Shown here one piece after another: positions 56,478 to 62,573 of a DNA stretch of 64,000 nucleotides (position 1 is the stretch's first letter; every line of letters begins with the position of its first letter). The position numbers were made by a program, and so were the translations under genes. The stretch spans positions 75,058-139,057 of the forward strand of contig JARKUZ010000067.1 of the NCBI GenBank assembly GCA_029851945.1, given 5' to 3'. This stretch comes from Terrisporobacter sp. Lineage in GTDB: Bacteria; Bacillota_A; Clostridia; Peptostreptococcales; Peptostreptococcaceae. Under the pieces are notes generated by a model that saw nothing but the letters and a program-made list of their open reading frames with translations, had not been told where the DNA came from and did no database searches.

Positions 56478-57353
<876 letters not shown>

Positions 57354-57387
57354 ATTGTACCCCCTAATATTTTTATTTTATAAATAA

Positions 57388-57416
57388 ATAGTAGTACAAT
57401 ACGAATTGTATTACAA
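57388..57416 (-). promoter_or_regulatory. Promoter of pdxST with an operator in its spacer
   Basis: Minus-strand TTGTAA (57411-57416) and TACTAT (57388-57393) are 17 bases apart. The spacer is the palindrome TACAAT-N4-ATTGTA (57395-57410), so a dimeric regulator would sit between the two boxes. Distance to the pdxS start is about 35 bases. Confidence 0.55.
57395..57410. promoter_or_regulatory. Palindrome TACAAT-N4-ATTGTA in the pdxS promoter
   Basis: A dyad of two 6-base arms. Its core AATACGAATTGTATT (on the plus strand) is matched at one mismatch, in reverse, by the element at 57441-57455. Confidence 0.5.
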
Positions 57417-57440
57417 TAATCCTTAATATTCTTCTATATA

Positions 57441-57455
57441 AATACAAATCGTATT
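57441..57455. promoter_or_regulatory. Second pdxS upstream element AATACAAATCGTATT
   Basis: A 15-base element with AATAC...GTATT arms, 31 bases from the first. Its reverse complement differs from the first by one base. Two such sites suggest cooperative binding. A PdxR-type MocR regulator is a candidate, but no such gene is in this window. Confidence 0.45.
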
Positions 57456-57546
57456 AATACAATTCATATAAAATATAAGTATTTGCTATAACCTTATTAA
57501 ATTTTTAAATTTTCACAATAGCATTTACTCTAAAGTTTTCTTAACA

Positions 57547-57593
57547 TAAAAAGCTATACACTTGAACATTCTTCGTCTAAGTATATAGCTTTT
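57547..57593 (-). terminator. Terminator of the ABC exporter operon
   Basis: A 15-16 bp stem (57547-57562 with 57579-57593, one G-U pair) and T run on the minus strand, next to the last permease stop. Confidence 0.85.
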
Positions 57594-57597
57594 GGCT

Positions 57598-58743
57598 TTA
57601 TATATCTGATACTATCTCTCTTTTAATTCTTCTAATAAGCATAACTGATGAAATTAAGATCAATAATCCATATATTATGTGCAATGTATACTTAGAATAA
57701 TAAGTAGTAGTTAAATAATACATCCCAATAGCTTTTAACCAACATCCAAATATAAATAATATTGGTATTTGAATACCTATTGCACTTATATATGTACTTG
57801 TTCTAGATGATACACAAATTGTCACAATAGATGTAATAATTGATACAATATAAGTTAAAATCACCGACAGAATTATATATTGACCAAATGTCATATCATA
57901 CCAAGATGACATATCACTTATAAATGAACTTATACTACAATCCCAGAACATATAAGTATTATTAGATTTATACACTGTAAACAAAATACCTAAGTGTATT
58001 GTAGTTATAACTATAGATGATATTAAACTTGCAATCACTTTTTTGCTAAAAAGTTTTCTTCCTGTCTTTGTACTATATTGAATATAATTCACTTTATTTT
58101 TATTATCATTGATAAAAATAGGACATATTAAAATAGGAACACATATTAAGACTAATAAATTTATTCCAAATATTAAACTATTGTAATTTCTAAATATCAT
58201 AAAATTTAAAGGAGAATTAGCTCCGTCGCTATCTCTAATTTCTTTATACATAGCTTTTTGAGCTTGACTTTCATCTTCACCTCCCGAACTTATCCAAAAC
58301 TCCTTATCTTCATATCGTTCTATAAAATAGTCTAAACTTTGTAACTCCCAGAATACTTCTACATTATCTTCAAACATTACTTTACTTATTAAGTTATCTG
58401 CTTTTTGATTATACCCCATTTTACTTGTAAAACTTATATAATCCTCATAACTATTAATATTTTCCTTTGCAAATTCCTCATCACTTAATAAATATCTATT
58501 AGCTTCTTTTATTTTTTCTTCTCTATATTTCTTAAAATCTTTAAACTCTTCTTCATCCATAGATGTTCCGTAATTTTTCAGCATATATACGCTAGTATCA
58601 TAATCATAAGCCTGAGATCCATTTGGAAAATTCTCTATGTTAAAGCTTATAAATAAAAACCATATTATAATTGTTATTAAAGCCACTACAATCATATTTA
58701 TTGGATTAAATATCTTTTTTATCTCATTTTTAATTATGTTCAT
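57598..58743 (-). CDS. ABC-2-type permease of the sigma-linked exporter (second)
   Basis: A 381-residue membrane protein: an N-terminal helix (residues about 18-34), a large extracytoplasmic loop (about 40-185) rich in charged residues, then five to six helices. This layout matches ABC-2/ABC-type permeases of the bacitracin- or lantibiotic-resistance kind. FLFISFNI near residue 30 and NDNKNKVNYIQYSTKTGR near residue 214 are not diagnostic. It pairs with the upstream permease and ATPase. 10 bases separate it from the upstream permease gene. Confidence 0.8.
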   Translation of the reverse strand: MNIIKNEIKKIFNPINMIVVALITIIIWFLFISFNIENFPNGSQAYDYDTSVYMLKNYGTSMDEEEFKDFKKYREEKIKEANRYLLSDEEFAKENINSYEDYISFTSKMGYNQKADNLISKVMFEDNVEVFWELQSLDYFIERYEDKEFWISSGGEDESQAQKAMYKEIRDSDGANSPLNFMIFRNYNSLIFGINLLVLICVPILICPIFINDNKNKVNYIQYSTKTGRKLFSKKVIASLISSIVITTIHLGILFTVYKSNNTYMFWDCSISSFISDMSSWYDMTFGQYIILSVILTYIVSIITSIVTICVSSRTSTYISAIGIQIPILFIFGCWLKAIGMYYLTTTYYSKYTLHIIYGLLILISSVMLIRRIKREIVSDI

Positions 58744-58753
58744 AATCTCTCCC

Positions 58754-60025
58754 TTAATTTATATCTTCATTTTTAAATCTATTTATAGTAAATAAGCTTC
58801 CTAAAATAATAACCATACCATTAATAACTATCGTAATAAGCTCATAATTCTTAAACATTACAGGTCCCATATCCATAAACCACATATGCGGATTACATAT
58901 TAATTGAAATATATTATAATGAGAATATAATAAAAGTGGTGACCTCTTACTTACTAGTGATGGTATCATCAGACTTATTCCAAATATTATAAAGAATATA
59001 AAAAACACTAAGTAACTATTTTTTATTAAGCTAGAAATTATAAATGAAATTGATACAAACATTACAGCACACATTATCACTATTAATACACTTAGTATTA
59101 AATGTTCTATAAAACTATTATTAAACCAACTTATATAAGGCGTATTATACTCCCAATTAAAAGCTGTGGTTATTGGTACATTTAAAACTTCACTATAATC
59201 AAACATAGTAAAGTAATAAGATAATGTAATTCCTAGAATTATAATACTTACTATCAATGATGCAAGTATGCATACTATAGACTTATCTCTTATATTTTTT
59301 CTTCCTCTTTTTGTAGAATAAACTAATAAATTAGTTTTATTATCAAATTCAAAATTAATTAAATAAGCAGTTATAAGAACTACTAATATCATTATTTCAT
59401 AAATACATTTTGAAAAAATATCTCTAAATAATAAGGAATGCATTCTATATGTTTGTCCTAAGAAAAATAAATTTTTATGTTCTTTATTTCCCTTTATCTC
59501 TTCAAATCTATTTGCTAACTCTTTATAATTTTCCCTTGCTAATCGAGCTGCACCTCCGCTTAATCCATAAGCTTCTATTGCCCTTTCTCCCATTTCCATA
59601 ATATTTATATCTTCATAAGACTGAACTAGGCTTACACTTTGATTTGAATATAAGTCTAATAATGCAACTTGAGAAAAAAACTCTAATTCATCTTTTGTAA
59701 AAACTCCATCTTCATAATTATTAGAATAGTATTCATCACTAGCCATAAATTCACTTACGCTTTTATATGTTTTATTTATCTTTTCCTTCGTTATCTTATT
59801 TAACTCCTTCAAACTATCTTTATACTTAGCCTTCATATTATTTATCATTTCATTGTCTATTTCATATCCAAACTCTGAAATCATATTATTTATTATTTTT
59901 ATATCTTCTTGAAGATATTTATTTTGATTTATAGTAATTATATTGAATAAAATAAAAACTACAGTTAGTCCAATAATTACAGGAGAAGATACAATTTTCT
60001 TAATTTCATGTACTTTTATATTCAT
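58754..60025 (-). CDS. ABC-2-type permease of the sigma-linked exporter (first)
   Basis: A 423-residue membrane protein with the same layout as its downstream neighbour: an N-terminal helix (about residues 14-33), a long extracytoplasmic loop (about 35-200), then several helices. The YSTKRGRKNIRDKS stretch near residue 233 parallels YSTKTGRKLFSKK in the neighbour, so the two permeases are probably paralogues that form a heterodimer. It lies 3 bases after the ATPase. Confidence 0.8.
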   Translation of the reverse strand: MNIKVHEIKKIVSSPVIIGLTVVFILFNIITINQNKYLQEDIKIINNMISEFGYEIDNEMINNMKAKYKDSLKELNKITKEKINKTYKSVSEFMASDEYYSNNYEDGVFTKDELEFFSQVALLDLYSNQSVSLVQSYEDINIMEMGERAIEAYGLSGGAARLARENYKELANRFEEIKGNKEHKNLFFLGQTYRMHSLLFRDIFSKCIYEIMILVVLITAYLINFEFDNKTNLLVYSTKRGRKNIRDKSIVCILASLIVSIIILGITLSYYFTMFDYSEVLNVPITTAFNWEYNTPYISWFNNSFIEHLILSVLIVIMCAVMFVSISFIISSLIKNSYLVFFIFFIIFGISLMIPSLVSKRSPLLLYSHYNIFQLICNPHMWFMDMGPVMFKNYELITIVINGMVIILGSLFTINRFKNEDIN

Positions 60026-60028
60026 AAA

Positions 60029-60901
60029 TTAAACCTCAGCTACTTCATCTTTATATTCATATAAAAATACATCTTCTAAGCTTGGATATGCTAAGTTCCA
60101 ATTTTTATCATACTCACCTTCACAAATAAATCTTACCTTAACTTTTCCATGTTCTTGTTTTTCTGATAGTGATAAGTATTTTTTCCTAAAATCCATTAAT
60201 TCTTTATTTTCTAATTCTGTTTCAAATACTTTACCATGTATTTTTTCACAAATATTTTCTATGTTATCTTTATAAAGTAACTCCTTATCCTTTATCATTA
60301 CTACTTCATTTGATATAAATTCTATATCCGAGACTATATGCGTAGATACTATTATTATTCTATCTCTAGATAATTCACTTAATAAGTTTCTAAATCTAAC
60401 TCTTTCCTTAGGATCTAGACCTGCTGTTGGTTCATCTAAAATTAATATCTTAGGATCATTTAAAAGAGCTTGTGCTATTCCTACCCTTTGTAACATTCCT
60501 CCTGAAAATTTCTTCATTTTTTTATCAGCCACATCTTCTAAAGCCACTAATTTTAGTAGATTCTTTATTTTTTCCTTAGCCACAGTTTTTTCTATACCTT
60601 TTAATGCAGCTAAATACATTAAGAATTTATTAGGAGAATAATTTTTATAATATCCAAAATCTTGTGGTAAATATCCAAGTATTTCTCTATATCTATCGTC
60701 CATAGTGATTATATTCTCTCCTTTATAAAGGATTTCTCCTTCAGTTGGATAGATTAATGTTGCTATCATTTTTATTAAAGTAGTTTTGCCAGCTCCATTT
60801 GGCGCAAGAAGACCGTAGACTCCATTTTCAAATTCCATATTTATATTTTTTAAAGCACAAAAATCTCCATAATTTTTCGTTATGTTTTTTATTGTTAACA
60901 T
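60029..60901 (-). CDS. ABC transporter ATPase of the sigma-linked exporter
   Basis: A 290-residue BcrA/CcmA-like ATPase. The P-loop GLLAPNGAGKTT is near residues 30-41, Q-loop in GYLPQDFGYY near residue 83, signature FSGGMLQRVGIAQA near residues 138-151, Walker B LILDEPTAGLDP near 158-169, and the H-loop STHIVSD near residue 192. It powers the two permeases. An AGGAGG-like GGAGGAA ribosome site precedes it, and the sigma-specific promoter motif lies 60 bases upstream. Confidence 0.92.
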   Translation of the reverse strand: MLTIKNITKNYGDFCALKNINMEFENGVYGLLAPNGAGKTTLIKMIATLIYPTEGEILYKGENIITMDDRYREILGYLPQDFGYYKNYSPNKFLMYLAALKGIEKTVAKEKIKNLLKLVALEDVADKKMKKFSGGMLQRVGIAQALLNDPKILILDEPTAGLDPKERVRFRNLLSELSRDRIIIVSTHIVSDIEFISNEVVMIKDKELLYKDNIENICEKIHGKVFETELENKELMDFRKKYLSLSEKQEHGKVKVRFICEGEYDKNWNLAYPSLEDVFLYEYKDEVAEV

Positions 60902-60960
60902 GAATTTCCTCCATTATTTTGTAAGTATATATTTAATTGCAATTAAATTCTTCATATATT

Positions 60961-60988
60961 TATTCGTATTTGCCTTTTAAATAGTTTT
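60961..60988 (-). promoter_or_regulatory. ECF-type promoter motif upstream of the ABC exporter
   Basis: Minus-strand AAAACT (60983-60988), then 13 bases, then ATACGAATA (60961-60969). The same words at the same spacing occur before the sigma gene (62376-62403). AAAC-like -35 and CGAA-like -10 are typical ECF shapes. The ATPase start lies 60 bases downstream. Confidence 0.65.
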
Positions 60989-61026
60989 ATATTTTTATTT
61001 ATTTTTTAATTAGTATAATTTTTTCT

Positions 61027-61785
61027 TTACATACTACTTAATTCTAATTTTACTGATTTATTATAATTAGATAATATTTTTATATTTTTTAAATAAATAA
61101 ATATTGATACTATACTTACTAAAGCATATACAGCTAAAGGTAGTGATTGTAAAAATTCAAAATATTGATTAGAGCTTAATCTAAGTAAAGCACCATTTCC
61201 TATGATCCAACCTACTATGACTATATATCTTGCTGCATAGTATTTTATTTTCGTAATTGAGTATAAAAATAATGCTGAAAATAAAAATATAGAAGTAATA
61301 GAAATCATAATTCCTCTAAGTAAATTTATTTGATTATGCAATCCTAATACAAATACCATACTTGAAAAAATTGAAATCACACTAAACACTAGCATTCTAA
61401 GTGCTGCTACTTGATACAAATTATATTTACAAATCATCTCTATATCATAAGTATTATTTTCTTTTACATTAATTAGTGAAAATACATTTGTTAATAAGTA
61501 ATATAGAGGTGAGATTATAAATATGAACATATATATTTTTTCTTTTGATATCATGTAGTCATTTCTTATAGATAGCATCATAAAAACTACAATTGAGATA
61601 AATAGCACTCCTATAAATATAAGTTCTGATGAATCATGAAATAAATTTTTAAAACCTATATTTTTATACATTTCCTTCATATATAAATAAAATGATTTCT
61701 TATTTTCTAGCCCTTTATCTAAAATTAAATTAACTTGTCTTTTTATTTCTAAATCATTGGGTATATCTATATTAAATTTTTCCAT
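61027..61785 (-). CDS. Membrane protein coupled to the ECF sigma factor (possible anti-sigma or partner)
   Basis: About 252 residues from ATG 61785, where AAGGAGG lies 7 bases before the start. The longer frame reaches into the sigma gene and is less likely. About 55 residues of cytosolic N-terminus precede six membrane helices (about 60-245). No zinc anti-sigma motif (HxxxCxxC) is seen. Tight coupling to the sigma gene (10 bases after its stop) suggests a regulator of it, possibly through the short cytosolic part. Family not recognised. Confidence 0.7.
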   Translation of the reverse strand: MEKFNIDIPNDLEIKRQVNLILDKGLENKKSFYLYMKEMYKNIGFKNLFHDSSELIFIGVLFISIVVFMMLSIRNDYMISKEKIYMFIFIISPLYYLLTNVFSLINVKENNTYDIEMICKYNLYQVAALRMLVFSVISIFSSMVFVLGLHNQINLLRGIMISITSIFLFSALFLYSITKIKYYAARYIVIVGWIIGNGALLRLSSNQYFEFLQSLPLAVYALVSIVSIFIYLKNIKILSNYNKSVKLELSSM

Positions 61786-61795
61786 TTTAGCCTCC

Positions 61796-62341
61796 TTAAA
61801 CTTCATTAAATTCTTTTTTAATTTTCTTGATAATTGAGTAGTATTTAGTTTTAACGGTGGATTCACTAAGCTCTAATATTTTGGAAATTTCCAAAAAAGT
61901 TGATTCTAAAAAAATCTTTAATCTAAATATTTCTTGATATTCACTGCTTAGTTTATTTACTATTGCTTGTATTTTTTCTACATCTTCTTTATGTTCTAAA
62001 TTAACTGTAAAATCTGTAGTATCTTCTATTTGTCTATCTTCTATGGTTTCTACTAAAGTTGCATATTTATAATTCTTAGATCTAAAATAATCTACTACTT
62101 TATTTGTAGCTATTCTATATAGCCAAGTTCTAAAAGATGATTTATTTTCATCAAAGCTATGTAGGCTTTTCAACATACTTATAAAAATCTCTTGTGTTAA
62201 GTCCATAGAAGTCTCTTTATCTGATGTTTGTTTAAATACATAAATATATATTTCTTTATAGTAATTAGAAATTAACTCGTCTGATGCACTTCTACTATTT
62301 CGTTTTTTAATTTTCTTAATAAGTCTTAAATCTTTATCCAT
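61796..62341 (-). CDS. ECF-type RNA polymerase sigma factor
   Basis: A 181-residue sigma-70 family protein with only regions 2 and 4, the ECF layout. Region 2: ELISNYYKEIYIYVFKQT, DLTQEIFISMLKSLHSF near residues 48-64 and WLYRIATNKVVDYFRSK near residues 73-89. Region 4: LEISKILELSESTVKTKYYSIIKKIK near residues 150-175. Its own promoter region carries the AAAACT-N13-ATACGAATA motif, as does the ABC exporter. Likely a cell-envelope or peptide-stress sensor circuit. Confidence 0.92.
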   Translation of the reverse strand: MDKDLRLIKKIKKRNSRSASDELISNYYKEIYIYVFKQTSDKETSMDLTQEIFISMLKSLHSFDENKSSFRTWLYRIATNKVVDYFRSKNYKYATLVETIEDRQIEDTTDFTVNLEHKEDVEKIQAIVNKLSSEYQEIFRLKIFLESTFLEISKILELSESTVKTKYYSIIKKIKKEFNEV

Positions 62342-62375
62342 TACTTGCCCTCATCATTTATTTTATACTTTTATA

Positions 62376-62403
62376 TATTCGTATTTATATTATAAAAAGT
62401 TTT
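62376..62403 (-). promoter_or_regulatory. ECF-type promoter motif upstream of the sigma gene
   Basis: Minus-strand AAAACT (62398-62403), 13 bases, ATACGAATA (62376-62384), 35 bases before the sigma start codon. It matches the exporter promoter exactly in words and spacing, which indicates autoregulation. Confidence 0.65.
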
Positions 62404-62485: not shown

Positions 62486-62527
62486 AAAATAAGTTAGCAT
62501 CTAGATGTATTATCTAAATGCTAACTT
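62486..62527 (-). terminator. Terminator of the gltS-hutD operon
   Basis: A 16-bp stem (62491-62506 with 62512-62527, one G-U pair) with T run on the minus strand, about 46 bases after the hutD stop. Confidence 0.85.
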
Positions 62528-62573
62528 ATCAAAACTTCAAAATATGTTTTTCTAAAAAGTTTTTAAATGCTTT

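What the first reader, a model, noticed from the sequence alone, without database searches (positions are those of the whole stretch)
57598..62403. One ECF sigma factor likely controls itself and a three-gene ABC exporter through an identical promoter word
Before the sigma gene (62376-62403) and before the ABC ATPase gene (60961-60988) the minus strand carries AAAACT, exactly 13 bases, then ATACGAATA. Six and nine bases match exactly at identical spacing, while the spacers differ. AAAAC and CGAA are shaped like ECF -35 and -10 elements. The sigma gene is tightly coupled to a six-helix protein without a zinc anti-sigma motif, and the exporter has two paralogous ABC-2 permeases. This could be an undescribed sensor-and-exporter module for a peptide or envelope stress. 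What is seen is the sequence match; the regulon model is inference.
Basis: partly seen in the sequence, partly recalled or inferred. Interest (0 to 1): 0.72.

Follow-up and report, generated by a model that had tools for sequence, protein, structure and literature searches.

The report
Self-switching sigma factor drives membrane exporter
A bacterial gene-switch protein appears to turn on both itself and a membrane pump through one very specific DNA word that is kept in dozens of related bacteria, and the protein that may hold the switch off has the predicted fold of a pump part.

Summary
AAAACT-N13-ATACGAATA lies exactly at 62376-62403 and 60961-60988; about 0.002 exact words are expected by chance. 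Among 60 genome records from Clostridia and Bacillales plus the window, 50 of 61 show all five genes in order: ECF sigma, six-helix partner, ABC ATPase, two permeases. The strict site AAAC-N17-CG[AG][AC]TA precedes the sigma gene in 55 of 59 loci and in 13 of 18 loci not used to define it; the nine others carry recognisable variants. A second copy before the ATPase occurs in 4 of 4 split operons (one with a mismatch) and 0 of 53 contiguous ones. In 28 Bacillales genomes 25 of 29 near-exact hits are the sigma promoter. Four loci with a different -35 also have a different sigma recognition helix. So the regulon model is well supported, by comparison only. New here: the partner is predicted to have an ABC-2 permease fold with a conserved coupling-helix region. 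I propose a permease-like anti-sigma factor sensing the exporter's substrate; that role, signal and substrate are inferred. The sigma may belong to the uncharacterised group ECF257.

The parts
61796..62341 (-). ECF sigma factor gene (181 aa; sigma regions 2 and 4 matched, no region 3 match)
   Evidence: Pfam Sigma70_r2 and Sigma70_r4_2; TIGR02937 above cut-off
62376..62403 (-). Predicted autoregulatory promoter of the sigma gene: AAAACT (62403-62398), N13, ATACGAATA (62384-62376); AAAC starts 61 nt before the ATG
   Evidence: strict site in 55 of 59 loci, window included
61027..61785 (-). Partner protein (252 aa): conserved N-terminal element, then predicted ABC-2-permease-like six-helix fold; putative anti-sigma factor and sensor
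   Evidence: next to the sigma gene
60961..60988 (-). Second copy of the promoter, before the ATPase gene (AAAC starts 86 nt before the ATG)
   Evidence: similar place in the split operons L002 and L018, and with one mismatch in L003
60029..60901 (-). ABC transporter ATPase
   Evidence: Pfam ABC_tran 106 bits, AAA_21 39 bits
58754..60025 (-). Permease 1 (423 aa), ABC-2 type
   Evidence: ABC2_membrane_2 matched in 5 of 30 homologues at E <= 1, best 6.4e-9; the window protein itself only E 0.034; paralogue of permease 2
57598..58743 (-). Permease 2 (381 aa)
   Evidence: paralogue of permease 1, probability 99.9%, E 1.7e-33; no convincing Pfam family of its own
57549..57593 (-). Hairpin after permease 2, terminator-like by eye
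   Evidence: 15-nt arms, 93% complementary, 15 nt apart; not called by the terminator scan, whose loop limit is 8
62489..62529 (.). Hairpin between the hutD-like gene and the sigma promoter; may separate the sigma unit from upstream genes (inferred)
   Evidence: 18-nt arms, 94% complementary; not called by the terminator scan

Best explanation
The five genes form a self-contained response module. The ECF sigma factor reads AAACTwTTT-N10-TACGAATATA, activates its own gene and the exporter, and little else. In most of the relatives found the five genes are one operon under one such promoter; in the window and three relatives the exporter part has its own copy. The partner, a membrane protein with a predicted ABC-2 permease fold plus a conserved cytoplasmic N-terminal element, most likely holds the sigma inactive and releases it when the membrane-active compound that the exporter removes is present. 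Shown by sequence comparison: gene order, promoter conservation, near-closed set of sites, promoter-sigma covariation. Predicted by model: partner fold. Inferred: anti-sigma role, signal, substrate, export direction. My separate estimates: promoters read by this sigma 0.95; partner ABC-2-like 0.9; partner is the anti-sigma 0.65; exporter acts on an antimicrobial peptide or similar compound 0.45.
Against: No transcription or binding data. The anti-sigma role rests on gene position alone; the co-evolution test did not single out the partner, permease 2 scored higher. Partner and permeases show no profile similarity, Foldseek alone gave no match at E <= 0.001, Pfam ABC-2 models match the partner family only weakly, and the tool warns that helical proteins can reach such Z by common arrangement. 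The relative's model is of low confidence (pLDDT 66.7). These genomes hold many ECF sigma factors (11, 22 and 18 matches to one ECF model in three genomes), so another could share the site. The four loci with the changed -35 may be one evolutionary event, and L159-L161 have a somewhat changed helix (GSVKS) with the usual AAACT.
Confidence: 0.7

Rival explanations
1. The partner is simply a third membrane subunit of the exporter. The sigma is controlled in some other way (its own synthesis, proteolysis, or an unlinked anti-sigma).
For: ABC-2-like predicted fold with conserved coupling-helix region; a few sources name relatives of the partner 'ABC-2 family transporter protein' or 'ABC-2 transporter permease' (distant family) or 'ABC-type multidrug transport system permease subunit' (P0190), though most named ones are 'hypothetical protein'; a review lists ECF257 as lacking an anti-sigma factor.
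Against: The exporter already has two paralogous permeases. A sigma match lies within 400 nt before the partner in 59 of 59 loci with upstream DNA, the two frames overlap in 46 of 53 loci by longest-frame starts, and the partner stays with the sigma when the exporter is split off. It carries an extra conserved N-terminal element before the ABC-2 part.
Confidence: 0.25
2. The two sites are real promoters but are read by a different ECF sigma factor.
For: Many ECF paralogues per genome.
Against: The site accompanies this sigma gene in Bacillales and Clostridia, near-exact copies elsewhere in those genomes are at background level, and its -35 changes with this sigma's recognition helix.
Confidence: 0.04
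3. The match is a coincidence in AT-rich DNA.
For: AT-rich window (28% GC).
Against: Expected 0.0016, found 2, and conserved in relatives.
Confidence: 0.01

Closest known systems
ECF257 (classification of Casas-Pastor et al. 2021, as listed in review PMC8999054)
   Same: ABC transporters and AAA ATPases as conserved neighbours, no recognised anti-sigma, unknown mechanism; example from Kurthia massiliensis (passages seen). The window ATPase matches both ABC_tran and AAA_21.
   Different: The primary paper is not held, so membership, promoter motif and any partner are unchecked.
Bacillus subtilis SigY operon (sigY-yxlCDEFG; layout and autoregulation recalled)
   Same: ECF sigma first, small partner genes, ABC ATPase and permease at the end; YxlF2G2 tabled as exporter of unknown function (PMC11466899, passages).
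   Different: The window sigma is far below the SigY cut-off (82.6 against 194 bits). SigY's small partners differ from a 252-aa six-helix protein (recalled).
CarQ-CarR of Myxococcus xanthus
   Same: Six-helix membrane anti-sigma encoded in a translationally coupled operon with its autoregulated ECF sigma (PMC8156234, passages).
   Different: CarR is a DUF1109 protein, a group described there as largely proteobacterial; no ABC exporter in the carQRS operon. DUF1109 is not among the families shown for the window partner family (25 of 44 shown in 55).
LytTR regulatory systems (HdrRM, BrsRM and relatives)
   Same: Autoregulated regulator plus membrane inhibitor, some with ABC transporter genes (PMC6193735, passages).
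   Different: The regulator is a LytTR transcription factor, not a sigma factor.
BceAB-BceS type flux-sensing modules (recalled)
   Same: A transporter informs the regulator that controls it, if the novel reading is right.
   Different: Two-component system, not an ECF sigma; different permease type.

Membership tests
ECF sigma factors | Sigma-70 regions 2 and 4 present, region 3 absent | tested here: met
   Pfam Sigma70_r2 63 bits and Sigma70_r4_2 38 bits, no region 3 match at E <= 0.001; TIGR02937 98.7 against cut-off 42.9
ECF sigma factors | Autoregulated, AAC-type -35 in its own promoter (common, not universal: PMC8103513, passages) | tested here: met
   By conservation only: strict site in 55 of 59 loci
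SigY, SigW, SigM or SigV families | Score above the curated NCBIfam cut-off | tested here: not met
   82.6/194, 78.8/209, 90.8/148, 57.3/190 bits
ECF257 | Sequence falls in the ECF257 cluster | not testable with these tools
Zinc class I anti-sigma (ZAS) | HxxxCxxC motif | tested here: not met
   0 of 72 partner homologues
Anti-sigma factor in general | Binds and inhibits its sigma | not testable with these tools
   Gene position only; mirror-tree inconclusive
CarR / DUF1109 six-helix anti-sigma | Pfam match | tested here: inconclusive
   Not among the 11 families nor the 25 of 44 shown
ABC-2 permease superfamily (partner) | Fold: six membrane helices, cytoplasmic coupling helix after TM2, short element before TM6 (recalled) | tested here: met
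ABC-2 permease superfamily (partner) | Pfam ABC2 family above gathering score | tested here: not met
   ABC2_membrane_2 in 3 of 72 members, best E 0.53
ABC-2 exporter (ATPase and permeases) | ABC ATPase with ABC-2 permeases | tested here: met
   ABC_tran 106 bits; permease 1 homologues reach ABC2_membrane_2 6.4e-9 in 5 of 30; permease 2 paralogous. Direction of transport not tested

The most novel reading that the evidence does not exclude
An ABC-2 permease has been turned into an anti-sigma factor. It keeps its coupling helix, docks on the operon's ATPase together with or in competition with the two permeases, and releases the sigma according to transport activity, so that an ECF sigma senses exporter flux directly.
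Probability: 0.25. Interest if true: 0.82.

Novelty: new variant of a known kind. Interest (0 to 1): 0.6.

Why it matters
It gives a testable case of an ECF sigma circuit with almost no predicted regulon beyond itself and one exporter, with a promoter specific enough to try as an orthogonal switch. If the permease-like partner is the anti-sigma, it would be a new way of controlling an ECF sigma and could explain a group listed as of unknown mechanism. The natural change of -35 together with the recognition helix gives a built-in specificity test.

Tried and rejected
Coincidence rejected. A wider regulon: four extra near-exact hits in 28 genomes (three in G105, one in G085), against seven for the reversed control pattern; by eye, two lie in importer-permease-like genes, one among phage-like genes, one before a small HTH-like gene, no common theme. 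The 28 genomes are a choice from about 48 Bacillales loci. In 11 clostridial genomes the pattern at up to one mismatch gave 61 hits (8 exact, 53 with one mismatch) against 143 for the reversed control; 4 of the 53 are operon sites (L003 ATPase; L004, L006, L025 sigma), the rest read as background. Co-evolution: partial correlation of sigma distances was 0.39 with permease 2, 0.25 with the partner, 0.24 with the ATPase, 0.01 with permease 1, using 42 of 61 sequences with all five proteins complete; inconclusive. Direct homology of the partner to the two permeases by profiles: none. Partner profile against PDB sequences: two chance-level hits. Link to ECF257: the last protein search named Rummeliibacillus, Solibacillus, Sporosarcina and others but no Kurthia (only the 7996 candidates sharing most words were scored). 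Plasmid search with the sigma: 100 records, all under 60% identity. Papers seen as passages only and little used: PMC7438776 (C. difficile ECF consensus sequences unknown), PMC7406223 (class I anti-sigma domains), PMC8103513 (ECF overview).
Full report
What is there. On the minus strand the window holds, in order, an ECF sigma gene (61796-62341), a six-helix membrane protein (61027-61785), an ABC ATPase (60029-60901) and two permeases (58754-60025, 57598-58743). Hairpins at 62489-62529 and 57549-57593 bound the set; the terminator scan, which allows loops up to 8, called neither. AAAACT-N13-ATACGAATA occurs exactly twice, with AAAC 61 nt before the sigma start and 86 nt before the ATPase start. 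The expected number from base composition is 0.0016. The best-matching relative of the partner among genome records is a Terrisporobacter MAG (95% identity), so the window is probably from that genus or close to it (inference).

Relatives. The partner has no Pfam or NCBIfam match of note. A protein search found 42 homologues, and a scan of one genome per species found 60 loci, in Clostridia and Bacillales (two of them, L034 and L043, lie in one MAG). With the window that makes 61 sequences. All five genes in the order sigma, partner, ATPase, permease 1, permease 2 are found in 50 of 61. Of the other 11, seven lie on contigs that begin or end inside the series (L001, L004, L006, L018, L035, L046, L057), L020 and L023 appear to have broken frames, and L017 and L058 (Saccharibacillus) have a divergent permease part. 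The module is patchy: 5 of 71 genomes of one clostridial family at E <= 1e-10, two of these being distant cousins; 16 of 200 and 6 of 104 genomes of two Bacillales families at 1e-20; and 2 of 398 genomes drawn from the phylum at 1e-15. These counts include the centre genomes.

Promoter conservation. 59 of the 61 sequences have the sigma gene with enough upstream DNA. The strict pattern AAAC-N17-CG[AG][AC]TA lies 58-130 nt before the sigma start in 55 of them, with 53 different 27-mers. Outside the sigma and ATPase promoters there are 7 matches in 1.09 Mb on both strands. The four misses (L007, L017, L051, L058) carry variants at the same place, read by eye; those of L017 and L058 are the weakest. 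The base counts give AAACTwTTT, ten mostly free bases, then TACGAATATA. AAAC, CG and the first TA are demanded by the pattern; the T after AAAC (52 of 55), the T of TACG (54 of 55) and the final TA (52 and 54 of 55) are not, and so show real conservation. A fresh set gave 25 loci, 7 of them already seen. Of the 18 new ones 13 have the strict site; four have a changed -35 with the same -10, and one has a single changed base at the end of the pattern.

The split operons. Partner end and ATPase start could be placed in 57 of 61 sequences. In 53 they are adjacent (gap up to 50 nt) and none has the strict site before the ATPase. In 4 (window, L002, L003, L018) they are apart, and all 4 have the site there, 75-86 nt before the ATPase; L003's has one mismatch.

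Regulon size. In 28 Bacillales genomes, chosen from about 48 such loci, the extended pattern with up to one mismatch gave 29 hits, 25 of them the sigma promoter, one in each of 25 genomes. The three genomes without a hit have sigma sites ending CGACTA. The four other hits are within the background, as the reversed pattern gave 7. The pattern with one extra spacer base gave none. In 11 clostridial genomes all 8 zero-mismatch hits are sigma or ATPase promoters; hits with one mismatch there are at or below the reversed control. So the regulon looks to be essentially the module itself, within what these patterns can see.

Promoter and sigma change together. Among 77 sigma loci, four (L138, L152, L153, L155) have CAACGATT in place of AAACTwTTT with the same -10. 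The same four, and only they, have (E/A)(R/K)IKA(Q/R) where the others have mostly STVKT(K/R/N) in the predicted recognition helix of region 4. L159-L161 have GSVKS with the usual AAACT, so not each helix change shows in the site. The four may reflect a single event, but they link this sigma to this site.

Mechanism. Sigma and partner frames overlap in 46 of 53 loci by longest-frame starts and nearly touch in most others, the usual layout of sigma and anti-sigma pairs. I take the partner as a permease-derived anti-sigma factor that senses the compound the exporter handles. The co-evolution test neither supports nor opposes this. A plain third permease remains the main rival.

What is known. 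An autoregulated ECF sigma with an ABC exporter is known in kind (SigY, recalled; YxlFG). Six-helix anti-sigma factors are known (CarR). The review PMC8999054 lists ECF257 with ABC transporters and AAA ATPases and an unknown mechanism; this module may be that group. The listings of the ten searches made (named under Tried and rejected) showed no description of this promoter or of an ABC-2-fold partner.

Noticed in passing
60931-60948; L003 and L002 upstream of the ATPase gene: A perfect palindrome ATTTAATTGCAATTAAAT lies between the ATPase promoter and its start codon; L003 has ATTTAATTATAATTAAAT there, and L002 has AATGACCACT...AGTGGTCATT around its -10 (read by eye). Possible second control of the exporter; not tested against chance.
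   Followed up: partly
L001:4463-5575, L002:10773-11984, L003:10674-11885: A third permease gene similar to permease 2 follows the partner in these three relatives (cut by the contig end in L001); the window lacks it.
   Followed up: partly
L135:3200-6658, L136:3815-7287: Cousin module (ECF sigma, partner relative, ATPase, permease) whose upstream DNA reads AAAAC(C/T)TTTTAT and CTCGTTATATA: same -35 type, different -10. Proteins of this partner family are listed from Terrisporobacter, Romboutsia and Metaclostridioides; their context was not seen.
   Followed up: partly
57380-57460: AATACGAATTGTATT and similar repeats upstream of the pdxS-like gene (56478-57353) look like operator sites (by eye; gene name recalled).
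   Followed up: no
L125:126-1348: A SigY-like sigma (182 bits to the SigY model, cut-off 194) followed by 94-aa and 132-aa genes, resembling a sigY-yxlC-yxlE layout (recalled), in the same Romboutsia genome (G002) that carries this module.
   Followed up: no
L001:689-2714: A different ECF sigma (183 aa) followed by a 500-aa protein lies just upstream of the module in the Terrisporobacter MAG.
   Followed up: no
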